A stretch of DNA of 64,000 nucleotides, from positions 2,527,339 to 2,591,338 of the forward strand of contig OX638329.1 of the NCBI GenBank assembly GCA_951812755.1, given 5' to 3'. Shown piece after piece: positions 2 through 13,464 of the stretch. Source of the stretch: an uncultured Latescibacterota bacterium. Lineage in GTDB: Bacteria; Latescibacterota; UBA2968. A program made the position numbers and the translations under genes. The stretch's first letter is position 1. The number at the start of each line of letters is the position of its first letter. Below the pieces are notes generated by a model. The model was given only the letters and a program-made list of their open reading frames with translations, made no database searches and was not told the origin of the DNA.

Positions 2-1780
2 CAATATGCTCACTTGATTGCGAATCGGATTCGCAGGTTGCGGGTTTATTCCGAAATTTTCCCACCGGATGTTGATCCTGCGGCATTGTGTGGCGTGTCG
101 GGCATGGTTTTTTCGGGTGGGCCATCCAGTGTGTATGATCCCGATCCGCCCGCGTTTAATCCCGGATTGCTGGATACTGATTTGCCCGTGCTCGGGCTGT
201 GTTATGGGCATCAGTTGTTGTGCATGCATTTGGGGGGTGAGGTGGTTGCAGGGGAGGTGCGAGAATACGGTTCTGCCAGATTGAATATTGCAGGTGGGTC
301 AGATTTGTTTGCCGGGCTTGGAGATTCCCAGGAGGTGTGGATGAGCCACGGCGATGTGGTTGCAATTTTGCCCGAGGGTTTTGAAATTTTGGGTACGACT
401 GAAGATTGTCCTTCGGCAGCGGTTGGCGATGTTAAACGCCGAATCTACGGCTTGCAATTTCATCCCGAGGTGGCACATACGCCGCGTGGATTAGATATTC
501 TCGATAATTTTTTGACGATATGCGATGCGCCTCGAACCTGGACAATGAGCAATTATGCCGAAGTGGTTATGGAGGAGATGCGAGAGAAGGTGGGGGACCG
601 CAATGTGTTTTTGCTGGTGTCGGGTGGAGTCGATTCTTCGGTGGCTTTTGTGCTGTTTAACAAAGCGCTGGGCGCAGACCGGGTGTTGGGGTTGCATATT
701 GACAATGGTTTTATGCGAAAAGGCGAGACGGCTGCGGTGGAGGTTTTTCTGAAAAAGGAGGGGTTTGACAATCTGATGGTCAAGGATGCCAGTGACGATT
801 TTTTGTTGGGTGTGGAGGGGCTGGTTGATCCAGAAGCAAAGCGCGAGGCGATTGGACACACATTTTTGGAGGTGAAGGACGAGGTGATGGCGCACTTGCA
901 TCTGGATGCAGACCAATGGGTGTTGGGACAGGGTACGCTTTATCCCGATACTATAGAATCGGGAGGAACAGAGCACGCCGCGTTGATTAAGACGCACCAC
1001 AATCGCATTGATTTGATCGATGAGTTGATTGCGCAGGGCAAGGTTGTCGAGCCTCTGGCACAGTTGTACAAGGATGAGGTGCGCGAGTTGGGGAGCGAGT
1101 TGGGGTTGCCCGATCATCTGGTGTGGCGACATCCGTTTCCCGGTCCTGGTCTGGCTGTGCGCTGTTTGTGCTCAGATGGTGAGGTGGAGGGGAGTGATAT
1201 TGCAGCGGCGGAGAGGGCCGCTTCTGAGATCGCTTCTGAGGCGGGTTTGCAATTGCGTGTTTTGCCTGTCAGAAGTGTGGGGGTTCAGGGTGATTTTCGC
1301 ACGTATTCGCATCCTGCGGTTGTTTCGGGTTTTACAGCCGAAAGTAATGGCGATTGGCGCGTGCTTGAAGATATGTCAACGCGGATTACCAATAGTGTGC
1401 CGGGTATTAATCGCGTGGTTTGTCTTATTGCGCCAGATGTGTTGCCCAGGTTGCGTCTTAAACGCGCATTTTTGACCTTTCAGAGGCTCGATGTTTTGCG
1501 GGAGGCCGATGCTATTGCCATGCGCGTGCTCGACCGTGCGGGTCTTATGTCCGCTGTGTCTCAGATGCCGACTGTTCTGGTGCCGTTGACGACAGATGGT
1601 CAAGATGAGATTGTGATTTTGCGTCCGATTACGACTCCGGATTTTATGACTGCGCGATTTGCCGAGTTGCCCCACAATCTGGTGCGCGATATGGCGGATG
1701 AGATACTGGGTCTGCCCGGTGTCGCTGCCGTGGGTTACGATATAACTCATAAACCGCCGGGGACTGTGGAATGGGAATGA
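2..1780 (+). CDS. guaA: GMP synthase (glutamine-hydrolysing), 5'-truncated by window edge
   Basis: Makes GMP from XMP, ATP and glutamine in the cytoplasm. The reading frame is open from base 2, and its first codons read QYAHLIANRIRRL, the conserved start of the amidotransferase domain, so the true start lies upstream of the window. The TTG at 14 is internal. The class-I amidotransferase domain shows GLCYGHQ (nucleophile Cys codon 200-202) and FHPEV near 461. The ATP-pyrophosphatase P-loop SGGVDS is at 620-637. The C-terminal dimerisation domain ends in the canonical KPPGTVEWE. The next gene starts at 1771, inside the last codons. The final 60 bases recur in diverged form at 2493-2552, which suggests an integration site. 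The identification is secure. Confidence 0.97.
   Translation, partial: QYAHLIANRIRRLRVYSEIFPPDVDPAALCGVSGMVFSGGPSSVYDPDPPAFNPGLLDTDLPVLGLCYGHQLLCMHLGGEVVAGEVREYGSARLNIAGGSDLFAGLGDSQEVWMSHGDVVAILPEGFEILGTTEDCPSAAVGDVKRRIYGLQFHPEVAHTPRGLDILDNFLTICDAPRTWTMSNYAEVVMEEMREKVGDRNVFLLVSGGVDSSVAFVLFNKALGADRVLGLHIDNGFMRKGETAAVEVFLKKEGFDNLMVKDASDDFLLGVEGLVDPEAKREAIGHTFLEVKDEVMAHLHLDADQWVLGQGTLYPDTIESGGTEHAALIKTHHNRIDLIDELIAQGKVVEPLAQLYKDEVRELGSELGLPDHLVWRHPFPGPGLAVRCLCSDGEVEGSDIAAAERAASEIASEAGLQLRVLPVRSVGVQGDFRTYSHPAVVSGFTAESNGDWRVLEDMSTRITNSVPGINRVVCLIAPDVLPRLRLKRAFLTFQRLDVLREADAIAMRVLDRAGLMSAVSQMPTVLVPLTTDGQDEIVILRPITTPDFMTARFAELPHNLVRDMADEILGLPGVAAVGYDITHKPPGTVEWE
1721..1780 (+). repeat. guaA 3'-end repeat, copy 1 (putative attachment site)
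   Basis: This is the last 60 bases of guaA, encoding VAAVGYDITHKPPGTVEWE and the stop. It pairs with 2493-2552 at 52 of 60 identical positions. The 3' end of guaA is a known integration target for genomic islands in many bacteria. Here the downstream DUF3267 gene has its ATG inside the repeat, at 1771. Confidence 0.7.
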
Positions 1781-2403
1781 AAGACAAAAACGGAGGTTCT
1801 GATCCGAGACCTCAAGGGGAATCCAATCACGACAAGGATCAGGAAATTCTTGAAATCCGCGTGGGTCAAATTTCTATGAACCTTCTTTCACTCCTTATGC
1901 TTTTTTTTGCGGCTAATATCGCCATTGTTGCCCAATTTCTATTTTCTTTTGAGATCGAGTTGCGTTTCCCCGGCATTGATAGCTGGAAGTTATTGGGGTC
2001 TTTTATTCCGCTTATTATTTTTCACGAGGTACTCCATGCTGTTGCCGCGCTACTGTGGGGGAGGATCCCTTGGCGTTCAGTACATTTCGGAGTCAAATGG
2101 CGACAGCTCATGTTTTATTGTCATTGTGATAGACCGCTAAAAGTGAATACGTATCGAATTTTTGCCCTTTTTCCTCTCCTTGTCACCACACCTATTGCAA
2201 GTCTTATCCTGTGGTTAGATCCATCTATCTGGTCGCTATTGTTCTTTAGTGTCACAATATCTGCCTGTGCCGGAGATGTCTTGCTGGTTTACAAGACCCG
2301 CCAGGTTGCAAATGACAAATGGATCCAGGATCACGAATCAGAACCTGGTTTCTGTATCCTACCAGAAGCTATCGCTGCATCCCCTGAAGAACACGACAGA
2401 TAA
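1771..2403 (+). CDS. DUF3267-type putative membrane zinc metalloprotease (copy A)
   Basis: A 210-residue membrane protein with an HExxH motif (H85, E86, H89 in HEVLHA) inside a hydrophobic stretch. It resembles DUF3267, a family of predicted membrane-embedded zinc proteases without an assigned substrate. Hydrophobic segments lie near residues 36-60, 74-92, 125-145 and 148-168. The C-terminal half has a conserved Cys/Asp pair (SACAGD). The start ATG overlaps the guaA stop region by 10 bases; an alternative ATG lies two codons later. The gene is a close paralogue of 2872-3723: both share NHDKDQ, DPSIWSLL and IQDHESEP. It lies between two guaA-tail repeats, so it may be cargo of an inserted segment. 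The function is not known. Confidence 0.75.
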   Translation: MGMKDKNGGSDPRPQGESNHDKDQEILEIRVGQISMNLLSLLMLFFAANIAIVAQFLFSFEIELRFPGIDSWKLLGSFIPLIIFHEVLHAVAALLWGRIPWRSVHFGVKWRQLMFYCHCDRPLKVNTYRIFALFPLLVTTPIASLILWLDPSIWSLLFFSVTISACAGDVLLVYKTRQVANDKWIQDHESEPGFCILPEAIAASPEEHDR

Positions 2404-2492
2404 TCTAAAATTCACACTAAAAAGTTGTTCTAAAACTCACACTGGAAGCGTGAGATGGCATATCCAAATTTGAAGCAGTCTATTTGGCTGCT

Positions 2493-2552
2493 GTCGCCGC
2501 CGTGTGGTACGATATTACTCACAAACCACCGGGGACTGTAGAATGGGAGTGA
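2493..2552 (+). repeat. Diverged guaA 3'-end relic, copy 2
   Basis: The 60 bases encode VAAVWYDITHKPPGTVEWE plus stop, matching the guaA C-terminus with 8 base differences. Six differences are synonymous third-position changes and two fall in one codon (Gly to Trp). That pattern suggests the copy evolved as part of a working guaA in another lineage before arriving here. In-frame similarity fades upstream of about 2472. No full second guaA is present. Confidence 0.75.
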
Positions 2553-2562
2553 TGATGGAGTG

Positions 2563-2796
2563 ATGAAAAATAAAAATTTAAAAAAAAGCCATTCTTTTAG
2601 TTACTGGCAATTGCTGTTCAATTTCATAATAGGGGGTTTTTTCGGCCCCATCTCCCTCACTGTGTTCTGGGGGGATCTTCATGATTTCATTTTCATATTG
2701 AGTAGCATTGCAGGTGGTTTTGCATTTAGTGGATTCTATTGGATGATTTATAAGCCAAAGAAATGCGAGACCCAACCCTCCAAAAAGAGGGACTGA
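2563..2796 (+). CDS. Small two-TM membrane protein, unknown
   Basis: A 77-residue protein starting at ATG 2563 (a GTG sits directly before it at 2560), 10 bases after the guaA-tail relic. It has a Lys-rich N-terminus, two hydrophobic segments (about residues 17-35 and 41-60) and a basic tail (KPKKCE, then KKRD). I do not recognise a family. Its position mirrors that of copy A, a small membrane protein beginning at a guaA-like end. It could be a minor cargo gene. Coding status is moderately supported by the amino-acid pattern typical of a membrane hairpin. Confidence 0.5.
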   Translation: MKNKNLKKSHSFSYWQLLFNFIIGGFFGPISLTVFWGDLHDFIFILSSIAGGFAFSGFYWMIYKPKKCETQPSKKRD

Positions 2797-2871
2797 TGAG
2801 TATTTTTATGGTGCCATCGGATTTTATGTGCAATATCTGAGCAAACACCTGCCATCTCAACAGAGGTTACA

Positions 2872-3723
2872 ATGAATTTCAAACCCACTCCCGAATATAC
2901 ATGGAAAGGACTAATTTGCGGTGTTGTCTTATATGTGCTCTTTTCTGTAGTTCCAACAATAATAATTCTGAGATATTTTTTAAATATCGATTATGGCTCC
3001 CTGATGGTTGGCTTGATTGTGTTTCTTATCTGCTTTGTAATAGGAAGAAAAACGTTTTGGGCTCAGGGGGATAGGGTGATGGCGGTGATGTTGAGTTTCT
3101 TTAGATCCAATGGCAAAAAAAATAATATAAGGAATTTCAATCACGACAAGGATCAGGACATTCTTGAAGTAAGTTTGGATACAGGTGATATGGGCATTCT
3201 TTATATGCTTATGTTTTTTTTCTCTCTTTATATCGCCATTGCCGTTCATTTTTTATTTTTTTGGGGGATCGAATTACGTTTTCCGGGCATTGATATATGG
3301 AAGTTTTTGGGATGTATTTGTATCATTATAATTCTTCACGAAGCACTCCATGCTTTTGTCGCGCTGCTGTGGGGGAAGGTCCCCTGGCATTCAATACATT
3401 TTGGATACAAATGGCGATTGGGAGGTTTTTACTTTTACTGTCATATTGATAAACCGCTAAAAGTGAATACTTTCCGAATTCTTGTCCTTTTTCCTCTCAT
3501 TATCACCACACCAATTGCGGGGCTTATTTGGTGGTTAGATCCATCTATCTGGTCGCTATTGCTCTTTAGTCTGACAATAGCTTTTTGTTCTGGAGATGTC
3601 TTGATGTTTTTTAAGGTCCGCCAGATTGAAAATGACCAATGGATTCAAGATCACGAATCAGAACCGAGTTTCTATATCCTATCAGAAGCTGTCGTTGAAT
3701 CCTCTGAAGAACATCATAGATAA
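2872..3723 (+). CDS. DUF3267-type putative membrane zinc metalloprotease (copy C)
   Basis: A 283-residue paralogue of the gene at 1771-2403. It carries an extra N-terminal block of about 75 residues with two hydrophobic segments (about 13-34 and 43-58). The HExxH is at H156, E157 and H160 (HEALHA). The shared core runs from NHDKDQ near residue 90 to the C-terminal ESSEEHHR. Similarity is roughly two-thirds identical residues by eye, with conserved DPSIWSLL and IQDHESEP, so the duplication is fairly recent. It starts at ATG 2872 after GAGG (2862-2865). The gene belongs to the putative inserted region after guaA. It is likely a membrane protease or related hydrolase; the substrate is unknown. 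Confidence 0.75.
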   Translation: MNFKPTPEYTWKGLICGVVLYVLFSVVPTIIILRYFLNIDYGSLMVGLIVFLICFVIGRKTFWAQGDRVMAVMLSFFRSNGKKNNIRNFNHDKDQDILEVSLDTGDMGILYMLMFFFSLYIAIAVHFLFFWGIELRFPGIDIWKFLGCICIIIILHEALHAFVALLWGKVPWHSIHFGYKWRLGGFYFYCHIDKPLKVNTFRILVLFPLIITTPIAGLIWWLDPSIWSLLLFSLTIAFCSGDVLMFFKVRQIENDQWIQDHESEPSFYILSEAVVESSEEHHR

Positions 3724-3763: not shown

Positions 3764-4282
3764 ATGGAAAAACATATAGCCTATTACGAGACCATAAGGC
3801 CCATAACGGTCTGGTCGGTAATCTTGTCTCTCATTATTGTTGCTTCCCCCTATATTTATTTTAACAGCCCGAAATTTATGATCTCTTTGGTTATAGCGGC
3901 TGCATATGTGATGTTTTGTGTTATATTTTTGCTTTACGGGCGTTATACAATTCAGATAGACGATACAGAAATCGCATTTGGTTATCGATTTACCGGTAAA
4001 GAAGAAGTTTTGTTGAATACAGTTGCGTATGCTGAGATTTTCATTTTTGATCCCAAAAATCCCATCAGACGCTTCGTCATTAATGCGCTTGGAAGGCCTC
4101 CCATTTGGATTTCGGGTACGTTGATCAGGTTGAGATTGAACGAAGAATACCTTACTCGATATAAACTCGGGCGGAAAAAGAAAGTGAGACAGTTGTTCCT
4201 GCTATCGAGAAAACCCGAATCGGTCTTGTCCGTGCTGTCAAAAAAAGGCGTTCCCGTTCAATCGCGATGGAGATCAAAATAA
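3764..4282 (+). CDS. Membrane protein with PH-like (YdbS/DUF304-type) domain, tentative
   Basis: A 172-residue protein with two N-terminal hydrophobic segments (about 17-35 and 39-60). A soluble beta-rich part follows, starting RYTIQIDDTEIAFGYR, a layout like bacterial PH-domain (DUF304-type) membrane proteins. The tail is basic (RKKKVRQ). The start ATG 3764 lies 40 bases after copy C, with a GGAG at about 3747-3750. The role is unknown. It closes the set of small membrane proteins between guaA and the glycosyltransferase cluster, and another guaA fragment follows it at 4291. Confidence 0.55.
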   Translation: MEKHIAYYETIRPITVWSVILSLIIVASPYIYFNSPKFMISLVIAAAYVMFCVIFLLYGRYTIQIDDTEIAFGYRFTGKEEVLLNTVAYAEIFIFDPKNPIRRFVINALGRPPIWISGTLIRLRLNEEYLTRYKLGRKKKVRQLFLLSRKPESVLSVLSKKGVPVQSRWRSK

Positions 4283-4461: not shown

Positions 4462-4564
4462 GTTTTTTTTGAAAATGGCACGGCTTTTGCAGATATGCTG
4501 TGTGCAAATCGCGTGAAAGGGATTGAAGCGGATGAGATGTCCGCGATACCAGAGAGGTGAAGTT

Positions 4565-5812
4565 TTGAAAAATACTACAGTTGCATTTTACAGCCAGCAC
4601 CTCATTGGCGTTGGGCACCATTTTCGCAATCGACAGATTGTTAATGAACTGGTCAAAACATGCGATGTGTTTTTTATCGATGGCGGGCGCTCTGTTCCCG
4701 AAGCCGATCTCGATGAACGGGTGGTGCGTATTTCTCTGCCGCCCCTTCGCACGGGACCACAGGGCATTGAGTCTGTTGATACGGAAAGTGATTTGCAGGC
4801 TGTGATGCGCGAGCGTCAGGCCAGGCTTTCCAAAGCGATGGAACAGATTTGTCCGGATGTGTTTTGTGTTGAATTTTTTCCTTTTTCCCGGTGGTCGCTC
4901 AAGGGCGAAATCCTCAATACAATTGTCAGACTCAATGAAGTCAATCCCAACGCGAAGGTGCTGTGTTCACTGCGCGATATTCCAACGCGGGCAAAAAGCG
5001 ATGAGTTGCAACCGACTGCCGCGCTTGCTCAGAGACGCGATGGGGACGCGATGCGGTTTTGTTCCGTGCCTTTTGGCGGGATACATCACGAGTATTTGGC
5101 TTTTAATCGGCGGTATTACGAGGAGGTCGTACCCGTGTTGAATCAGTATTTCGATGCGGTGATGGTGCATGGCGATTCCCAACTATCGCGGTTGGAAGAT
5201 CACTTTCCCTGGGTAGATGATATCGGTATTCCCGTGGTTTATACGGGATTTGTTTCCGAGAAACTCAAGGACGCCTCTCGGCCTGATGGTGCGCCGAATC
5301 GGTATGTGTTGGTCAGTGCTGGCGGCGGGGTTGAGGGGCTTGCCCTTGTCGCGCCGTGTATTGAAGCGTGGAAACAATTGGAACGGGACGATGTGCACGA
5401 TGGACGCGAGATGGTGATTTTTACAGGTGCGTTTATCGATGAAACGCATTTTGATGCTTTGCGCCAGTTGTGCGGTGATGGTCCGTTTCGCATTGAACGC
5501 TTTACGTCCAATTTTTTGGCGTGGATGAAACACGCGGATTTGTCGATTAGCCGGGCGGGTTACAATACCTGTATGAATGTGCTTGAGACACAAGTTCCAT
5601 CGATTCTGGTGCCGAGTATTGCGATGGATGATCAGGAATTTCGCGCGCAGCAGTTGATGGCGTTGGGCATTGCACAGGTGATACATCCCGATCAATTATC
5701 CGTGGCAAAGATGGCAAAAGCCATTGCCGAAATACTCGAAAGTTCTGTGCCTGAACACCATCTATCCCTAGATGGTGCCGAGCAAACGCGAAAGTTTATA
5801 GAATCAGTCTAA
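4565..5812 (+). CDS. MurG-like GT-B glycosyltransferase (COG4671-like)
   Basis: A 415-residue predicted cytoplasmic glycosyltransferase. The N-terminal half opens FYSQHLIGVGHHFRN, resembling the predicted glycosyltransferases of COG4671. The C-terminal half has the MurG-like donor-binding segment (SISRAGYNTCMNVLE, then DDQEFRAQQL). I chose TTG 4565 because GAGGTGA (4554-4560) precedes it at good spacing; a longer frame from 4523 has no such site. The next glycosyltransferase starts 12 bases after its stop, so they are probably co-transcribed. With the peptide genes and exporter downstream, it may glycosylate a secreted peptide or make a sugar precursor. The substrate is not visible from sequence. 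Confidence 0.8.
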   Translation: MKNTTVAFYSQHLIGVGHHFRNRQIVNELVKTCDVFFIDGGRSVPEADLDERVVRISLPPLRTGPQGIESVDTESDLQAVMRERQARLSKAMEQICPDVFCVEFFPFSRWSLKGEILNTIVRLNEVNPNAKVLCSLRDIPTRAKSDELQPTAALAQRRDGDAMRFCSVPFGGIHHEYLAFNRRYYEEVVPVLNQYFDAVMVHGDSQLSRLEDHFPWVDDIGIPVVYTGFVSEKLKDASRPDGAPNRYVLVSAGGGVEGLALVAPCIEAWKQLERDDVHDGREMVIFTGAFIDETHFDALRQLCGDGPFRIERFTSNFLAWMKHADLSISRAGYNTCMNVLETQVPSILVPSIAMDDQEFRAQQLMALGIAQVIHPDQLSVAKMAKAIAEILESSVPEHHLSLDGAEQTRKFIESV

Positions 5813-5824
5813 AAGAGGTGAAAG

Positions 5825-7228
5825 ATGAAAATTTATGTGTCACATCCTTATCACGACTGCGAGAAAGTGATGGCGTCGAATATCGGAGCGGCCCTTTCGG
5901 GTTTTAACCATGTGCAGGCGTTATCGAAGTATTGCGAGGTGTATATGCCAGCGTCTGAAGCCGTGGATTATGGTCCGAATTTGCACGGTATTCGGCAAGC
6001 ATTTGAGACGATTGATTCGTCTCGACAATGGTTTGAGCGGCAGGGATATGACGGTGTGCTGATGTTTGAGCCTAAGGTAGATGATATAGCGTTTTTCCGC
6101 CATGTGTGTCCCGCGCCCATTGTGATTCGGCTGTCGTGTTCTTTTGGGAACAATCGCGATTTTATAGACAAGGTGCTGAATTGTTATTCGCTGTTGCGGC
6201 CTTATGATGCCCTGTCGCCCAAGTCGGCGTATGTCGCTGACGAAATCGGCAAGATAGTGTTTGACAAGTCGTATTTGCGCCCGATTACCAATGGGGTAGA
6301 TGCCGAGGTGTTTGTGCCGATAGATAAGTTGCAAGCGCGCAAAGAGGTCGCGGATAAGACGGGTGATCAACGTTTTTTAGAGATGCCAGTGGTGGGTTTT
6401 TGCGGGCGGTTTGAGCCGGGCAAGGGCGCGTATCCGTTTTTGCGAATGGCCGATCTGAATCCCAATGTGTTGTTTGCGGTGATTGGCAAGCAGTTTGCAC
6501 CTGTGACACATCCGCCCAATGTGATCTTTTTGGGGGCGCAACCTTATACGCAGATGCCGCTGTATTACAACATGCTGGATGTGTTGTGCGCGCTGTCGGT
6601 GTATTCGTATGAGTCATGTCCTTCAACTGTGATAGAGGGCATGGCGTGTGGCCTTCCGGTTGTGGCGACAAATTTTGCGGGTGCGCCAGAGTTGTTGGGC
6701 AGTTGTGGGCGATTGATTGAGATTGAGCGATTCGAAGATGAGCCATTGAATGTGACGGGGTATATCGCCCCTGAAGTAATTTCAGATGCTGTGCGCGATC
6801 TATTGAATAGCAAGACAGAGCGCAGGGAAATGGGAGAGGGTGCTCGCAAACGTGCGCTCGAATTTTCCTGGGATCATACGGCGCAGCAGCACATGGCATT
6901 ATTTGAAGATCTGCTGGCCAAACGCGATGCATCCGCCTGCCCGATACCAATAACCGTGAATTTTACACAGAGTTGTGATGCGTCTGGTAACCCGAAAAGT
7001 GTGTCCAAAGTATTTAACTATCTGGGAAGCAGACAAGGCCCATTGCCGCGTATCCCGTTTTTGGGACAGGATATGTCCCTTCTTGAGGGCATGGGCCTTC
7101 ATTTGATGCAACATTTACACCCAAACGAAGTCGAAGCCGCTTTGTTGGGCTTATGTGAGACGCGCGCTACAGCCTACAAAACGCTTCGCAAAATCCGACA
7201 CTTCAGCGATATGCTCACGGCTCCCTGA
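5825..7228 (+). CDS. GT4-family glycosyltransferase with C-terminal extension
   Basis: A 467-residue GT-B enzyme. The donor-binding half shows VVGFCGRFEPGKG (near residue 190) and the retaining-enzyme E-x7-E motif in ESCPSTVIEGMACGLP (near residue 265). About 90 residues beyond the usual GT4 end (from about 378) form an extra, unrecognised domain with a Cys near its start (QSCDASGN). The start ATG 5825 follows AGAGGTG. It sits 12 bases after the MurG-like gene and 53 bases before the first small peptide. I infer a modifying role for the peptides, as in glycocins, but a polysaccharide role cannot be excluded. Confidence 0.8.
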   Translation: MKIYVSHPYHDCEKVMASNIGAALSGFNHVQALSKYCEVYMPASEAVDYGPNLHGIRQAFETIDSSRQWFERQGYDGVLMFEPKVDDIAFFRHVCPAPIVIRLSCSFGNNRDFIDKVLNCYSLLRPYDALSPKSAYVADEIGKIVFDKSYLRPITNGVDAEVFVPIDKLQARKEVADKTGDQRFLEMPVVGFCGRFEPGKGAYPFLRMADLNPNVLFAVIGKQFAPVTHPPNVIFLGAQPYTQMPLYYNMLDVLCALSVYSYESCPSTVIEGMACGLPVVATNFAGAPELLGSCGRLIEIERFEDEPLNVTGYIAPEVISDAVRDLLNSKTERREMGEGARKRALEFSWDHTAQQHMALFEDLLAKRDASACPIPITVNFTQSCDASGNPKSVSKVFNYLGSRQGPLPRIPFLGQDMSLLEGMGLHLMQHLHPNEVEAALLGLCETRATAYKTLRKIRHFSDMLTAP

Positions 7229-7281: not shown

Positions 7282-7485
7282 ATGACACGACGAATTATAT
7301 CAATGCCAGCACAAGTTTCTGTGACCTGTGTTCAACTCCCCGGTCAAGAAATAGAACTGGCGCGTAGTGAGATGGCGAATACATCAGGAGGGTGCATTTT
7401 GCCAGGAGAAGATCCATTGGAGCACCTTGAAGATATTATTGATGATATCTGCGATGCGGTGAGTGAATGGTGGGCTTCCTGGTAG
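7282..7485 (+). CDS. Double-glycine leader peptide, candidate exported peptide precursor 1
   Basis: A 67-residue peptide. ATG 7282 follows a near-perfect AAAGGAGGTGA at 7266-7276, stronger than the alternative GTG 7273. The leader ends in Gly36-Gly37 with L26 at -12, E30 at -8, M31 at -7 and T34 at -4, the positions used by C39 peptidases of bacteriocin exporters. The predicted core is 30 residues (C38 to W67), acidic, with two Cys (C38, C57) and an amphipathic stretch (LEHLEDIIDDICDAV) ending in three Trp. A block TC-x2-LP-x5-L-x3-EMA is shared with the next peptide. The C39 exporter lies downstream. The family is not one I recognise. Confidence 0.8.
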   Translation: MTRRIISMPAQVSVTCVQLPGQEIELARSEMANTSGGCILPGEDPLEHLEDIIDDICDAVSEWWASW

Positions 7486-7588
7486 CAATCGCCCTACACC
7501 CCATAAGACGCTATTTCTGTTATTCAGATACTGGACGAAAACCATCTTTTTTTGCTGAATCTTACAATTCATTTACCCGGAGGATGTT

Positions 7589-7996
7589 ATGTCCGCTGTC
7601 GCATTAAATAATCGCGTGACTTCAGATTCAAATTCAGACGCTGTTTTTGCCTCTTGCACGATACTGCCTATCCATCAAACAAGGCTCAATGCTGAAGAAA
7701 TGGCAGGTCTTGATGGTCTGGGAAGTTTGACAGATGCTATTGATAAGGCGGTAGATTATGTTTCTAATGTTGTTGATGAAGTGGGAGATTATGTTTCTGA
7801 TGCTGCTACTACTGCTTCGATAGCTATTTTCGGTGGGGCTGTTTATTCAGACTTAGATCCTGATCCATTTGCTTTCCCAACAGGACGTGATACACTGATT
7901 ATTATCACTCGGGAACCACATACATGCGATGGCCCGTACGTGTACACATCTTATGGGAATTGTCTGTGTCCGGAGATAATACGCAGAATCCCGTAG
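7589..7996 (+). CDS. Candidate exported peptide precursor 2
   Basis: A 135-residue protein starting at ATG 7589 after GGAGG (7580-7584). Residues 22-39 (SC-x2-LP-x5-L-x3-EMA) align without gaps to residues 15-32 of precursor 1, including L at -12, E at -8 and M at -7 of the presumed leader. The expected GG is replaced by G43-L44, followed by G45-S46. After this comes an acidic helical stretch (DAIDKAVDYVSNVVDEV), a small hydrophobic part with GG at 82-83, and a C-terminal region with three Cys (TCDG and NCLCP). It could be a second substrate, a partner peptide or an immunity protein. The shared leader favours a substrate. Confidence 0.7.
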   Translation: MSAVALNNRVTSDSNSDAVFASCTILPIHQTRLNAEEMAGLDGLGSLTDAIDKAVDYVSNVVDEVGDYVSDAATTASIAIFGGAVYSDLDPDPFAFPTGRDTLIIITREPHTCDGPYVYTSYGNCLCPEIIRRIP

Positions 7997-8151: not shown

Positions 8152-11100
8152 ATGAATCTTTCGCTCTTTTTCGTCAAAAACTCAGTTCGGTCACAATCTG
8201 TTCGTTTTCCCTTTGGGAGTGTTGTTTTTCAACAGGGACAAGCGGGTGAGGCATTTTACATTGTGCAGTCTGGACGGTTGCGGGTGATTAAACAGGATGC
8301 GAATGGCAATTCGACCACTGTGGGCTATTTGTATGCGGGCGATCATTTTGGCGAAGGGGCATTATTGAGCGGGCAAGGGCATCGGGCAACGGTGCGAGCG
8401 GTTGAGGATGCGGATGTGTTGCAGGTGCCAAAGGATGAATTTTTTAAGGCTGTGAGAAAACATTCTGATGTACGAGCCTATCTTGAGGAGCAGGTCGCCT
8501 GTATTGCGTATCGGGATTTTACGCGATTTTTGAAAGGGGATGTTCCGAGTGATGTGATGCGGGTGTTGTTCGCAAGGTTGAAGCGCGAGGCGGTTGAGAA
8601 GGGTGTGACGGTTGTTGATCGCGGTCAGTTGGGACAGCGATTTTATTTGATTGGCAGTGGTCAATTGGAGGCTGTGTCAGAAAATGGGGACACGGTGATT
8701 TTGAGCCAGGGTGATTATTTTGGAGATGAAAGTTTATCAGGTGATAAAAAGGTGATTCGCAGTCGGTGTGATAGTGTGCTCTTTTATATCGATAAAAGCG
8801 ATTTTAATAAGCTAAAAGCTATGATGCCGGGATTTGAGGAGGCGTTGGAGAGCGGCCGCATATTGCGCGGAGATCAAGCATCGAATGGGTCATTGTTGCG
8901 ACAAGTGCGACAAGTACCTGAGCCACTTACTGCGCGATCTGATGAAAAACTGGCATCCAATACAGCATCCAATGTAGTTAATATCAGAATAGACGGTGTC
9001 AAACCATCCACATTGTTTCGCTTCCCATTTTTGAAGCAGCACGATCAATCGGATTGTGGCGCGGCGTGTTTGGGCATGATTTGTAAGTACTACAAGATGC
9101 CGATTGGATTGAACAGGTTGCGCGATATGTCCAATGTGTCGCGGTATGGCACGTCGATGGCGGCATTGGCCGAGGCTGCGGAGACACTGGGTTTTGTCAC
9201 GCGCGGCGTGCGCACGGGGTATGAAGCCCTGATGCGGACAGAATTGCCGGCCATTCTGTACTGGGAAGGCAACCACTTTGTGGTCTTGTATCAGATTACA
9301 AAAAAGGAGGTGAAGATAGCGGATCCCGGCGTGGGTATTCGCAAGCTGTCGCGGGCAGAGTTCGAGAAGGGCTGGACAAACAGGGCACTGTTGCTGGAAT
9401 ACACGGATCAGGTGGCAGAGAACGAACCGTCTCAGTCTTCTTTTAAGCGGTTTTTTCCGTTAATAAGACCTTACACAGGCATATTGATTGAGGTGCTTTT
9501 GGCGTCTCTGGTGCTCAGTTTATTTGGTCTGGCGTCGCCCATTTTTATGCAGACCATTGTCGATCAGGTCTTAGTGCATCACGATGAGGATTTGTTGAAT
9601 TTGATGCTGGTGGGCATGGTCGTTGTCGCGTTGTTCCAGATGGGTACATCGACCTTGCGTGTCTATTTAATTGGATATGTGAGTGCGCGGTTGAGCATTG
9701 CGATGTTGTCGCGTTTTTATCGGCATTTGCTGGCGCTGTCCATGCAGTTTTTTGCTCTCAGACGCACGGGCGATTTGACCACGCGGTTTCGAGAGAATGC
9801 GACGATTCGGCGGTTGTTGACGGGTGCGACGGTTTCTGCGGTTCTGGATTTTATCATGCTTTTTGTCTATCTGGGTCTGATGTTTTATTACAATGCCGAA
9901 CTGACGCTGGTCATGCTGATTTTTGTGCCGCTCTCTGTAGGGATCACACTGATTTATACGCCCATTTTGAAGGCTTTCAGCCAGCGTGCTTTTTTGGCGC
10001 GTGCCGAACAATCATCGGTTTTAATTGATTCGCTTCATGGCATTGATGTGGTCAAAGCCGCGGCGGTTGAGCGCGCGACGCGGTGGCATTGGGAAGGCAA
10101 GTTCACGAAGGAAATAGAGATTGGCTTTCAACGGTTAAAAATGCAGATGCTGTTTGGGGGGATCGGAAGCGTGATCAATTTGTTGAGCAGTACGGTGATT
10201 TTGTGGTATGGTGCTTCATTGGTGATTGCGGGGGACCTGTCGGTTGGACAGTTGATGGCGTTTAATGCGCTGATTGGCAATGTGATGGGACCGATTATGG
10301 GGTTGATTGGGATATGGCCGCAGGTGCAAGAAGCGCGTATTGCTCTGGATCGGCTGAATGATGTGTATGACACGCAGATGGAAGATGCGCGGCAACAGGG
10401 TCAGGGTTTGATCTTAAAGCATTTAGAAGGACGGGTGGTTTTTGAGGGGGTATTTTTTAGATATGGTGTTGGTTCTGACGAACCTTATGTGTTGAATAAT
10501 ATAGACCTGACGCTTGAGCCGGGTCAAAAAGTTGCGATTGTGGGACGCAGTGGTGCGGGTAAGACGACGTTGGTAAAGTTGGTGTCTCGTTTATTTGATC
10601 CGTCAGAAGGGCGGGTGATGATAGATGGGATGGATGTGCGAGATCTGGACCCCCATTGGTTGCGGCGACAGGTGGGTATGGTGATGCAGGAGCCGTTTTT
10701 GTTTTCTGGCACGATTGCAGAAAATATCGCTATTGGTCAGTCAGATGCGGACATGGATCGCATTTTGGAAGTGGCAAAGCTATCGTGTGTACACGATTTC
10801 GTAAGCGATATGCCTTTGGGGTATGAGACAAAGGTCGGTGAGCAGGGTGTGGGGTTATCTGGCGGACAGCGACAGCGGATTGCGATTGCGCGGGCACTGT
10901 ATTGCGATCCCAAGATTTTGATATTTGATGAGGCGACCAATGCCTTAGATACGGATTCAGAACAGGCGATTCAGGCGAATTTAGATATGTTTTTGGATGA
11001 TCGAACGGCGTTGATCATAGCCCATCGGTTGAGTACGGTGCGCGATGCGGATGCGATTGTGGTGCTGGATAAGGGACATATTGTGGAGATGGGCACACAC

Positions 11101-11166
11101 GATGAGTTGATGGTGCAACAGGGTTTGTACTATCACCTGTGTAGTCAACAGTTGCAGGTCGTGTGA
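8152..11166 (+). CDS. Peptidase-C39 ABC exporter with two cyclic-nucleotide-binding domains
   Basis: A 1004-residue inner-membrane exporter that would cleave a double-glycine leader and pump the peptide out. Domains in order: cyclic-nucleotide-binding domain 1 (about 17-100) with FGEGALLSGQGHRATV, close to the phosphate-binding cassette; domain 2 (about 135-225), more degenerate; C39 peptidase (about 287-415) with Q299, C302, H375 and D391 all present; six-helix transporter region (about 438-715); ATPase with Walker A GRSGAGKTT (K804), LSGGQ (902-906), Walker B ILIFDE (922-927) and H958. The gene follows two leader peptides and precedes an HlyD adaptor. Ligand-gated export through the N-terminal domains is inferred. 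A weak GAGG precedes ATG 8152. Confidence 0.93.
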   Translation: MNLSLFFVKNSVRSQSVRFPFGSVVFQQGQAGEAFYIVQSGRLRVIKQDANGNSTTVGYLYAGDHFGEGALLSGQGHRATVRAVEDADVLQVPKDEFFKAVRKHSDVRAYLEEQVACIAYRDFTRFLKGDVPSDVMRVLFARLKREAVEKGVTVVDRGQLGQRFYLIGSGQLEAVSENGDTVILSQGDYFGDESLSGDKKVIRSRCDSVLFYIDKSDFNKLKAMMPGFEEALESGRILRGDQASNGSLLRQVRQVPEPLTARSDEKLASNTASNVVNIRIDGVKPSTLFRFPFLKQHDQSDCGAACLGMICKYYKMPIGLNRLRDMSNVSRYGTSMAALAEAAETLGFVTRGVRTGYEALMRTELPAILYWEGNHFVVLYQITKKEVKIADPGVGIRKLSRAEFEKGWTNRALLLEYTDQVAENEPSQSSFKRFFPLIRPYTGILIEVLLASLVLSLFGLASPIFMQTIVDQVLVHHDEDLLNLMLVGMVVVALFQMGTSTLRVYLIGYVSARLSIAMLSRFYRHLLALSMQFFALRRTGDLTTRFRENATIRRLLTGATVSAVLDFIMLFVYLGLMFYYNAELTLVMLIFVPLSVGITLIYTPILKAFSQRAFLARAEQSSVLIDSLHGIDVVKAAAVERATRWHWEGKFTKEIEIGFQRLKMQMLFGGIGSVINLLSSTVILWYGASLVIAGDLSVGQLMAFNALIGNVMGPIMGLIGIWPQVQEARIALDRLNDVYDTQMEDARQQGQGLILKHLEGRVVFEGVFFRYGVGSDEPYVLNNIDLTLEPGQKVAIVGRSGAGKTTLVKLVSRLFDPSEGRVMIDGMDVRDLDPHWLRRQVGMVMQEPFLFSGTIAENIAIGQSDADMDRILEVAKLSCVHDFVSDMPLGYETKVGEQGVGLSGGQRQRIAIARALYCDPKILIFDEATNALDTDSEQAIQANLDMFLDDRTALIIAHRLSTVRDADAIVVLDKGHIVEMGTHDELMVQQGLYYHLCSQQLQVV

Positions 11167-11311: not shown

Positions 11312-12688
11312 ATGGCAGAATCGCTTTTGGAGACATCGGCAGAGACAATGTCTCCAAAAATTGTCCAGGGACAAGATGAAGCGGCAGAAGAGGTGCATGC
11401 GTTTATGGGGTCTTTGAGACCCTTTTGGGGGCGTGCATTGCTCTATATTGTCCTGCTGTTTATAGGTATTGCCATTATATGGGCGTGGTGGAGTGAAGTA
11501 GATCTGGTAACGTCAGCCCCTTTTCAGTTGGTGCCTATGGGACAGGTGAAGACGATGCAGGCACGGCGAGGCGGTGAAATTGAGTTGATTGGTGTTAAAG
11601 AAGGGGATCATATTGAGAAAGGGCAGGTGGTATTTAAGCTCAAATCATGGGAGACCTGGGGCGATTTGCGGGAATGGGAACAGGCAAAGATGGCTTTTCA
11701 GAAGGCAGAGCACGATCTCAAAAGGGTGTTGCCACAAAGGGCAAAATTAAATCGAGAGACGATAGGCGCGCTGGAACAACGTCTTTCTGTTTTGCAGCAG
11801 TTTATGGTGGCACACCAGAATGCGCTGGAAGATTATCAAAGCGATGTGGGCGGTGTTGTGGAATCAAAAAACAAAACATCTGAGTTGCAAGCGCAGATTG
11901 GGTTTCGACAGGCTGAAATTGATCACTTAAAACAGGAGTTTTTGCAGCAAAAGACGCTATTTGAGCGAGAATTGATCAGCCGGGCGGATATGAATCGCGC
12001 GCGTGTGCAGTATTTGAGTGCTCTGTCTGCACTTCCGTCGCGTATGTCAGAGATATACAAGAATGAAATGGCTGTGCAGGATCTCAAGCGGCAAATCACA
12101 GAAGCGCGTATTGCACACGAGCGCGAAGCATCGCAAATGCGACACGCTTATGAAACTGCACGATTGCGATTGGAACAGGCGCGCAAACGCATTGATCGGA
12201 CTCTGGAAGCCGAGTCAGACCTGATTCTGGCACCTGAGTCGGGCATTGTAACACAGGTGATGGTGAATGCGATTGGACAGGTGATCAGCAAGGGGCAGGC
12301 TTTAATCGCGCTGGCACCGGCCTCCGCACCGATGGTTGCGGAACTGATGGTGTTGAATAAAGATGTGGGCTTGCTCAAGCCCGGGCAATTGGTCAAGCTG
12401 AAATACGATGCGTATGCATTTCAGGATTTTGGCATCAAACGCGGGTGGCTTACATACATCTCGCCCGATGCGGTGATTGATGAACGTATTGGACCGATAT
12501 TTAAGGGTGTTGTTGAATTAGAAGAACATACCATGCATGTGCAAGGATACGACAAACCACTGATGTTCGGGATGAAGGGCACGGCAGAGGTTATGACAGA
12601 TCGCCAATCGGTCTTAATGATGTTGCTGAGTCCCTTGCGACAGCTTTACGAGTCGGCAAGGTACGATGTTCAAGAGGGTGCGTTGTGA
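11312..12688 (+). CDS. HlyD-family membrane-fusion (adaptor) protein
   Basis: A 458-residue type I secretion adaptor linking the exporter to the outer membrane across the periplasm. It has a cytoplasmic N-terminus, one membrane helix (about 46-62), a lipoyl-like barrel-sandwich segment (about 85-110 and 305-325), and a long coiled coil (about 125-290, rich in Glu, Gln and Arg). A beta-barrel domain near the C-terminus holds LLKPGQLVKLKYDAYAFQ. Start ATG 11312 follows AAGGGGG. The next gene overlaps its stop (TGATG at 12686-12690), so the two are translationally coupled. An outer-membrane TolC-like partner is not in the window. Confidence 0.92.
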   Translation: MAESLLETSAETMSPKIVQGQDEAAEEVHAFMGSLRPFWGRALLYIVLLFIGIAIIWAWWSEVDLVTSAPFQLVPMGQVKTMQARRGGEIELIGVKEGDHIEKGQVVFKLKSWETWGDLREWEQAKMAFQKAEHDLKRVLPQRAKLNRETIGALEQRLSVLQQFMVAHQNALEDYQSDVGGVVESKNKTSELQAQIGFRQAEIDHLKQEFLQQKTLFERELISRADMNRARVQYLSALSALPSRMSEIYKNEMAVQDLKRQITEARIAHEREASQMRHAYETARLRLEQARKRIDRTLEAESDLILAPESGIVTQVMVNAIGQVISKGQALIALAPASAPMVAELMVLNKDVGLLKPGQLVKLKYDAYAFQDFGIKRGWLTYISPDAVIDERIGPIFKGVVELEEHTMHVQGYDKPLMFGMKGTAEVMTDRQSVLMMLLSPLRQLYESARYDVQEGAL

Positions 12689-13464
12689 TGTCAGAGGATG
12701 CTATACTGATTCAGGTTAATGGCGCTGAGGTGTCATTCAGCCATGTTGTGCGGCAGATGGGTGTTGCTGATAATCTGCGTTTTTTTGATGGGTTTGTGCG
12801 CAGGGAATTGATCCGACAACTCGCCCGGCGCGAGGGTGTTTGTGCGGCGCGTGAAGATATTCAGCGCAAGGTAGATGAATGGCGGTATCAACATCATTTG
12901 GAGCGGGTGGAAGATACAGAGGCATGGCTCGCACAACGGGGCATTACGCTTCAGGATGTGGCAGAAGATGCCGAGGTGAGGCAGCTGGAGTATTTGCTGT
13001 CTGAGAAGGTTGCCGAGGGACAGGTCGAATCCTATTTCACGCAACACACGCTGGCGTTTGATGAGGCGGAGATTTGCTGGATTTTTCACACGGATAAGGG
13101 CGTGATCGACGAGATTGATTTGCAGATACGAGAAGATGATGCGGACTTTTACGCGATGGCGCGTCGATTTTCTCAAGATGCACGCACGCGATCAGGTAGT
13201 GGCTTTTTGGGCAGGGTACGGCGCAAGCAATTGCCAAAGGGGATTGCTGCGCGTGTTTTTGCCGCTTCGCCGGGTGAAATTTTTGGTCCGGAAAAAGTAT
13301 CGAAAGGATTTGCGCTGTACCTGGTACAGCAACTCTACCCGGCAACGCTGGACGAGAGGATTAAAAAGGAAATTCGCAAGCTTCTGTTTAATCAGTGGTT
13401 GCAACGAGAGATGCAGCGGACAGATATACGGTATCCGATTTGGCAGATGGAAATTAAAAAATAG
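12688..13464 (+). CDS. Parvulin-type peptidyl-prolyl isomerase (SurA/PpiC-like) of the export cluster
   Basis: A 258-residue protein with a helical N-terminal chaperone-like part (about 1-140) and a C-terminal parvulin domain (about 150-225). The parvulin shows FSQDARTRSGSGFLGRV and the F-AASPGEIFGP segment typical of PpiC/SurA. No signal peptide or membrane segment is visible, so it probably acts in the cytoplasm, perhaps presenting substrate to the exporter. ATG 12688 overlaps the adaptor stop; a GTG at 12685 is an alternative. It is the last gene of the cluster. Similar isomerases next to C39 exporters and HlyD proteins occur in cyanobacteria, as I recall. Confidence 0.85.
   Translation: MSEDAILIQVNGAEVSFSHVVRQMGVADNLRFFDGFVRRELIRQLARREGVCAAREDIQRKVDEWRYQHHLERVEDTEAWLAQRGITLQDVAEDAEVRQLEYLLSEKVAEGQVESYFTQHTLAFDEAEICWIFHTDKGVIDEIDLQIREDDADFYAMARRFSQDARTRSGSGFLGRVRRKQLPKGIAARVFAASPGEIFGPEKVSKGFALYLVQQLYPATLDERIKKEIRKLLFNQWLQREMQRTDIRYPIWQMEIKK

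What the first reader, a model, noticed from the sequence alone, without database searches (positions are those of the whole stretch)
7282..7996. Two dissimilar precursors share a leader block
Precursor 1 residues 15-32 and precursor 2 residues 22-39 align without gaps over (S/T)C-x2-LP-x5-L-x3-EMA. In precursor 1 the block ends exactly at the double-glycine positions L-12, E-8, M-7, T-4, G-2 and G-1. The cores after the block are unrelated in length and Cys pattern. A shared leader with divergent cores is the expected signature of one export system serving two substrates.
Basis: partly seen in the sequence, partly recalled or inferred. Interest (0 to 1): 0.85.

Follow-up and report, generated by a model that had tools for sequence, protein, structure and literature searches.

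The report
Shared export tag, swapped peptide cargos
Two small neighbouring genes in an uncultured Latescibacterota bacterium make peptides that start with the same export tag but carry different cargo, next to a peptide-cutting export pump; the tag recurs on dozens of different, mostly bacteriocin-like cargos across related bacteria and almost nowhere else.

Summary
Precursor 1 (P1, window 7282-7485) and precursor 2 (P2, 7589-7996) align without gaps over (S/T)C-x2-LP-x5-L-x3-EMA. As a single pair the match is only modest (shuffle P=0.013 over whole proteins, 0.0024 over the leaders), but a profile built without any P1- or P2-type sequence finds both (7e-12 and 8e-5). In the 6.5 Mb genome the leader profile hits three places: P1, P2 and a third precursor (P3), all beside the genome's only two C39 transporters. 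Across 64 genomes of the phylum it occurs only in the 16 with this transporter, plus one whose contig ends just after the precursor. At least 39 precursors share the block; in the P2 family leaders are 72% identical and cores 29%. So one cNMP-C39-ABC/HlyD/PpiC exporter probably serves several substrates, most likely microcin- or bacteriocin-like. Corrections: P2-type leaders mostly end in Gly-Leu, not Gly-Gly; P1 and P2 cores share an acidic helix and are probably paralogous; loci carry up to four precursors. The machinery matches cyanobacterial bacteriocin groups I/II/VI. The leader family matches no curated model and adds a conserved C(-22)xxL(-19)P(-18) motif. Cleavage and activity are untested.

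The parts
7282..7485 (+). Precursor P1 (67 aa): leader 1-37 ending Gly36-Gly37, core CILPGEDPLEHLEDIIDDICDAVSEWWASW (30 aa, net charge -9)
   Evidence: ORF with SD; orthologues in 10 genomes of the genus, dN/dS 0.34 leader, 0.48 core; leader HMM 1.9e-16 in own genome (profile includes this sequence), 7e-12 when P1/P2 rows are left out
7324..7377 (+). P1 leader block residues 15-32 (T-23 to A-6)
7589..7996 (+). Precursor P2 (135 aa): leader to about residue 43/44 (EEMAGLDG-L), core about 91 aa with acidic amphipathic helix and C-terminal Cys cluster
   Evidence: ORF with SD; leader HMM 6.2e-15, 8e-5 without P1/P2 rows; family alignment A3
7652..7705 (+). P2 leader block residues 22-39
8152..11166 (+). 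Peptidase-containing ABC transporter (PCAT) with two N-terminal cNMP-binding domains, C39 peptidase, ABC membrane and ATPase domains
   Evidence: Pfam cNMP_binding 6.7e-34, Peptidase_C39 1.4e-39, ABC_membrane, ABC_tran
9022..9402 (+). C39 peptidase domain (aa 291-417); catalytic Cys302, His375, Asp391
   Evidence: Pfam; invariant in A1; aligned to PCAT1 4ry2/6v9z catalytic Cys/His
11312..12688 (+). HlyD-family membrane fusion protein
   Evidence: Pfam HlyD_3 2.8e-12
12685..13464 (+). PpiC/SurA-type rotamase, TIGR04500-like (sub-threshold)
   Evidence: Pfam Rotamase 1.2e-12; TIGR04500 5.6e-28, 98 bits v. cut-off 180
5825..7228 (+). Glycosyltransferase (467 aa) ending 54 bp before P1; same length and position upstream of precursors in most loci of the genus
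   Evidence: Pfam Glycos_transf_1 8.7e-19; synteny
4523..5812 (+). Glycosyltransferase with GT28 C-terminal domain
   Evidence: Pfam 1.4e-14; synteny
3764..4282 (+). 172-aa small membrane protein, also at the paralogous locus; possible accessory or immunity role (inference)
   Evidence: no Pfam family; cluster c17
1771..2403 (+). DUF3267 putative membrane zincin; candidate immunity or accessory protease
   Evidence: Pfam 9.6e-17
2872..3723 (+). DUF3267 putative membrane zincin, second copy
   Evidence: Pfam 2.5e-16

Best explanation
P1 and P2 are two substrates of one exporter. Their common leader docks on the C39 domain of the cNMP-C39-ABC transporter through L(-12) and M(-7). C39 cuts after the glycine site, at least for P1. 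The ABC part, with the HlyD protein and an outer-membrane channel not found here, moves the core out, and the PpiC/SurA-like rotamase probably assists or chaperones it. The distal C(-22)xxL(-19)P(-18) element probably adds selectivity for this transporter. The cores are diversified cargos, most likely microcin- or class II bacteriocin-like, with variable membrane proteases (CPBP, DUF3267) as candidate immunity proteins. Shown here: shared leader, genome-wide restriction to transporter loci, intact catalytic residues, conserved leader with swapped cores. Inferred: cleavage, export, role of the distal motif, antagonistic function. The confidence given is for the shared-exporter claim; the antibacterial role alone I put at about 0.55.
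For: Leader HMM hits exactly three places in the 6.5 Mb genome, P1, P2 and P3, all beside the only two C39 genes; next hit E=0.83. In the order, 16/16 genomes with the transporter have leader-bearing precursors and 4/5 without have none; the fifth (G013) has one on a contig that ends 0.4 kb after it, where the transporter would be expected. None of the other genomes of the phylum has a hit. Leader 72% v. core 29% identity in the P2 family. Register L-12/E-8/M-7/G-2/G-1 equals the PCAT1 consensus L(-12)XXXE(-8)L(-7)XXXXG(-2)G(-1) (PMC6959990); C39 residues C302/H375/D391 conserved. Cargo looks bacteriocin-like by several weak hits: Bacteriocin_IIc 9.4e-5, cerein 7B family 0.0074, microcin V 0.083, and up to 10 GxxxG motifs. 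CPBP or DUF3267 membrane proteases lie in most complete loci.
Against: P2-type leaders have Leu (11 of 13) or Gln at -1, whereas known C39 sites are GG, GA or GS, so P2 may not be cut the same way. Bacteriocin family hits are all below curated cut-offs. Cores are mostly strongly acidic (P1 -9, P2 -9), unlike most cationic bacteriocins. One cargo (L058) is collagen-like with no protease/immunity neighbour. No cleavage, secretion or activity data.
Confidence: 0.82

Rival explanations
1. Same export system, but the cargos are not antibacterial: they are secreted matrix, biofilm or signalling peptides, like the GG proteins of Synechococcus elongatus biofilms or the unknown substrate of HetC.
For: Cores mostly acidic; one collagen-like cargo (L058); glycosyltransferases adjacent in most loci and a wecB-like gene beside L012; cNMP-C39 transporter HetC drives heterocyst differentiation with substrate unknown (PMC10986499); small GG proteins act in biofilm formation of Synechococcus (PMC4997328, abstract).
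Against: CPBP proteases of the kind linked to bacteriocin self-immunity in most complete loci; glycine-zipper cores and sub-threshold hits to three bacteriocin families; fast core turnover in the P2 family fits antagonism.
Confidence: 0.35
2. P2 is not processed by the C39 domain at the Gly-Leu site: it is exported with its leader, or cut by another protease (DUF3267 or CPBP membrane protease), so only P1-type peptides are true double-glycine substrates.
For: -1 Leu in 11 of 13 P2-type leaders while Gly-2 is invariant; published C39 sites are GG, GA or GS (PMC7018657, PMC10986499).
Against: Docking positions L-12, E-8, M-7 and G-2 all conserved in P2; one orthologue (L047) has GG at this site; no protease of one kind accompanies every P2 gene.
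Confidence: 0.35
3. The leader block is a chance or compositional match between two unrelated small ORFs.
For: P1-P2 pair alone is weak (whole-protein shuffle P=0.013; no BLASTP hit); P1-only and P2-only HMMs do not find each other.
Against: HMM without any P1/P2 rows finds both; hhalign of the two families E=6e-6; BLASTP E=8e-5 in genome G006; dN/dS below 1 and in-frame indels.
Confidence: 0.01
4. The glycosyltransferases upstream modify the peptides, so this is a glycosylated RiPP pathway rather than an unmodified peptide system.
For: 467-aa glycosyltransferase ends 54 bp before P1 and keeps this position in most loci of the genus plus G013 and G019.
Against: Genus g6 loci of family f2 (L054-L057) carry the same leaders and exporter without these genes; no GT2 (SunS-like) domain in the Pfam results; no lanthionine, radical-SAM, YcaO or ATP-grasp domain among the neighbouring proteins scanned.
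Confidence: 0.15

Closest known systems
Cyanobacterial bacteriocin gene cluster groups I, II and VI (long C39 ABC transporter with N-terminal nucleotide-binding domain + HlyD + SurA rotamase; PMC3140520, PMC4558948)
   Same: Same three-gene export cassette with double-glycine precursors nearby
   Different: Precursors are not NHLP or N11P; different phylum; membrane proteases and glycosyltransferases in place of the cyanobacterial modification genes
PCAT1-CtA / class II double-glycine peptides (PMC6959990)
   Same: C39 catalytic residues and leader spacing L-12, E-8, L/M-7, G-2, G-1
   Different: Extra cNMP domains; M at -7; extra C-22 L-19 P-18 element; Gly-Leu in most P2 leaders
Pneumococcal RtgAB system (PMC7018657)
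   Same: Several GG peptides with highly conserved leaders and one transporter; selectivity motif at -22 to -18 including Pro-18, the very region conserved here
   Different: Gram-positive, no cNMP domains; role of the motif here only inferred
HetC of Nostoc PCC 7120 (PMC10986499)
   Same: cNMP-binding domain fused to a C39 ABC exporter
   Different: HetC has no known substrate gene nearby; here substrates are adjacent

Membership tests
C39/PCAT double-glycine peptides | Leader with L-12, acidic -8, hydrophobic -7 | tested here: met
   36/39 L-12, 29/39 E-8, 36/39 M-7
C39/PCAT double-glycine peptides | GG, GA or GS at the cleavage site | tested here: inconclusive
   Met for P1 and P3; P2 has Gly-Leu
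C39/PCAT double-glycine peptides | Cognate transporter with intact C39 catalytic residues nearby | tested here: met
C39/PCAT double-glycine peptides | Cleavage after the glycine site and export | not testable with these tools
   needs purified protein or secretion assay
Cyanobacterial groups I/II/VI bacteriocin clusters | Long C39 transporter with nucleotide-binding domain, plus HlyD, plus SurA-like rotamase | tested here: met
   definitions from PMC3140520 and PMC4558948
Cyanobacterial groups I/II/VI bacteriocin clusters | NHLP or N11P precursors (a large part of those known) | tested here: not met
   no NCBIfam match for window P1, P2 or P3 up to E=1
Class II bacteriocins (Pfam Bacteriocin_IIc) | Score over curated cut-off | tested here: not met
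   window P1/P2 no hit; relative L048 E=9.4e-5, 22.8 bits v. 27.1
Class II bacteriocins / microcins | Antibacterial activity with dedicated immunity protein | not testable with these tools
   CPBP and DUF3267 neighbours are candidates only
TIGR04500 peptide maturation rotamase | Score over curated cut-off | tested here: not met
   98.2 bits v. 180, E=5.6e-28
RtgAB-type distal leader motif | Conserved motif at -22 to -18 in the substrates of the transporter | tested here: met
   C-22 and L-19 in all 39 (partly by the selection pattern), P-18 in 34/39; P0-type leaders keep LP but not Cys
RtgAB-type distal leader motif | Motif directs selective export | not testable with these tools
   needs leader swaps

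The most novel reading that the evidence does not exclude
The leader carries a second recognition element, C(-22)xxL(-19)P(-18), that routes a swappable set of cargos to one transporter, and this transporter also handles substrates with Gly-Leu in place of Gly-Gly, either through an altered C39 site or by export without normal cleavage.
Probability: 0.35. Interest if true: 0.65.

Novelty: new variant of a known kind. Interest (0 to 1): 0.52.

Why it matters
It defines a leader family, apparently undescribed, with many cargos in an uncultured phylum, and gives a profile that finds the cargos genome-wide. It offers a natural test of how C39 exporters choose substrates: the distal motif sits at the same positions (-22 to -18) that set selectivity in pneumococcal RtgAB, which its authors reported as unique as far as they knew. 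The Gly-Leu site in P2-type leaders challenges the Gly-Gly rule. It would also give candidate substrates to the cNMP-C39 transporter type, whose best-studied member (HetC) has none known.

Tried and rejected
P1 hits at 4.61 Mb are antisense to a sulfatase gene: noise. AlphaFold2 of P2 with 12 relatives gave pLDDT 46: uninformative apart from a possible core helix at 47-81, so no fold search was made. Plasmid search with P2: none. cNMP-C39 loci from Deltaproteobacteria, Planctomycetota, Nostoc, Tolypothrix and Leptolyngbya show no such leader; Burkholderia L136 has a looser DLPESVDLDRQAMAAITGG leader, LP one residue closer to the cut. Promoter and terminator scans: nothing. The first regex was off by one; redone. 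Chance origin rejected. The P3 dN/dS run failed for lack of synonymous differences.

Full report
WHAT IS THERE. The window is G000:C1:2527339-2591338 of a 6.53 Mb single-contig genome. Relatives of its transporter at 84-87% identity lie in MAGs named Candidatus Latescibacterota (one filed as Gemmatimonadota). From 1.8 to 13.5 kb, all on the + strand: two DUF3267 membrane zincins, a 172-aa membrane protein, two glycosyltransferases, P1 (7282-7485), P2 (7589-7996), a transporter with two cNMP-binding domains, C39 peptidase, ABC membrane and ATPase domains (8152-11166), HlyD (11312-12688) and a PpiC rotamase (12685-13464). P1 and P2 match no Pfam or NCBIfam model.

IS THE BLOCK REAL. The coordinates and residues are as stated. 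Judged on the two sequences alone it is modest: score 30 over 18 columns, P=0.013 for whole proteins and 0.0024 for leaders alone; BLASTP finds nothing; HMMs from P1-type only and from P2-type only do not find each other. Relatives settle it. An HMM from 16 leaders with no P1 or P2 rows scores window P1 at 7e-12 and P2 at 8e-5 for a 70,000-ORF search. hhalign of the two families gives E=6e-6. In genome G006 the two orthologues match by BLASTP at 8e-5. dN/dS is 0.34 (leader) and 0.48 (core) in ten P1 orthologues, so P1 is a real gene.

WHERE THE LEADER OCCURS. The genome has two C39 genes. The leader profile A2 hits three places: P1, P2 and a third precursor P3 at L012:15793-16191(-), beside the second C39 gene. 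Next hit: E=0.83. A2 contains P1, P2 and P3, so their E-values there are not independent; the absence of orphans is. In the order, all 16 genomes with the transporter have such precursors and four of five without have none. The fifth, G013, has one on a contig that ends 0.4 kb after it, behind the same two glycosyltransferases (L130). No other genome of the 64 in the phylum has a hit. Regex and HMM searches gave 39 block-bearing precursors, up to three per locus, plus a related type P0 that keeps LP but lacks the Cys (TNLPIKTSDLNRIEIAQISGA). A more distant locus (L062, 47% identical transporter) has four precursors with TCKPLAILSETISPQEMS..RGG and pairs of M16 peptidases.

LEADER VERSUS CORE. 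In 13 P2-type precursors leader identity averages 0.72 and core 0.29, leader above core in 78/78 pairs. P2 cores include a Cys-tailed type and a glycine-zipper type with 7-10 GxxxG. In a subset with alignable cores dN/dS is 0.50 for leader and 0.88 for core. P1-type cores are more stable (0.74 v. leader 0.81). The cores are not all unrelated: P1 and many P2 share an acidic amphipathic segment (AVDYIGDTV / AVDYISDVV in G006), best explained by paralogy.

HOW IT WORKS. PCAT1 binds leaders of form L(-12)XXXE(-8)L(-7)XXXXG(-2)G(-1), with a hydrophobic knot at -7 and -12 (PMC6959990). The block has L-12 in 36/39, E-8 in 29/39 and M-7 in 36/39. C302, H375 and D391 are invariant in the C39 alignment and the Cys and His align with PCAT1. 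Upstream, C-22 and L-19 (both partly imposed by the search pattern) and P-18 (34/39) form a distal motif. In RtgAB the -22 to -18 region, including P-18, directs selectivity (PMC7018657). I infer the same kind of role here. P2-type leaders have invariant Gly-2 but Leu or Gln at -1, except one with Gly (L047). C39 sites are usually GG, GA or GS (PMC7018657), so P2 cleavage is an open question.

CARGO. Relatives give sub-threshold hits to Bacteriocin_IIc (9.4e-5) and cerein 7B (0.0074), and P3 to microcin V (0.083). CPBP (Rce1-like) and DUF3267 proteins lie in most complete loci; CAAX/CPBP proteins are linked to bacteriocin production and self-immunity in Gram-positives (papers listed, e.g. PMC9298176). 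That DUF3267 proteins could do the same is my inference. Against: strongly acidic cores and one collagen-like cargo (L058). I put antagonism at about 0.55 and matrix or signal roles at about 0.35.

KNOWN OR NEW. The cassette equals the long-type transporter + HlyD + SurA of cyanobacterial groups I/II/VI (PMC3140520, PMC4558948). HetC is the best-studied transporter of this type, substrate unknown (PMC10986499). A search of the held literature for Latescibacter with bacteriocin gave no paper on such a leader by title or abstract. Hence a new variant of a known kind.

Noticed in passing
L012:16240-16300 (minus strand; G000 second C39 locus): A decayed P0-type precursor start: conserved SD and MTR, then an in-frame stop, followed by codons for VVSNPEK, matching the P0 leader of relatives.
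   Followed up: partly
L062:2120-7443: Four precursors with near-identical leaders (TCKPLAILSETISPxEMS..RGG), different cores, and pairs of M16 peptidases beside a 47% identical transporter.
   Followed up: partly
L058:7248-7700: Leader block attached to a collagen-like GGK/GTT repeat core, with no candidate immunity gene between precursor and transporter.
   Followed up: partly
L060 and L064 (G008): Both cNMP-C39 transporters of this single-contig genome are interrupted by stops or frame changes, though precursors remain at L060.
   Followed up: no
L063 (G018:C89): A family f2 genome carries a second locus whose C39 part is 88% identical to the window's and whose precursor is P2-type, unlike its own locus: likely horizontal transfer.
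   Followed up: no
L045:6631-12958: Locus with a P4 precursor, a protein kinase-AAA protein, an S41 peptidase and a dockerin/EF-hand protein before the transporter.
   Followed up: partly
window 1771-3723: Two tandem DUF3267 membrane zincins; in the paralogous locus L012 two CPBP (Rce1-like) proteases are found instead.
   Followed up: partly
L136:14779-15165 (Burkholderia stagnalis): Small ORF with leader DLPESVDLDRQAMAAITGG a few kb from a cNMP-C39 transporter gene; P3-type leaders (ALSINHEDLDRQAMTEVSGG) resemble it, hinting that the block is a variant of a wider leader class.
   Followed up: partly
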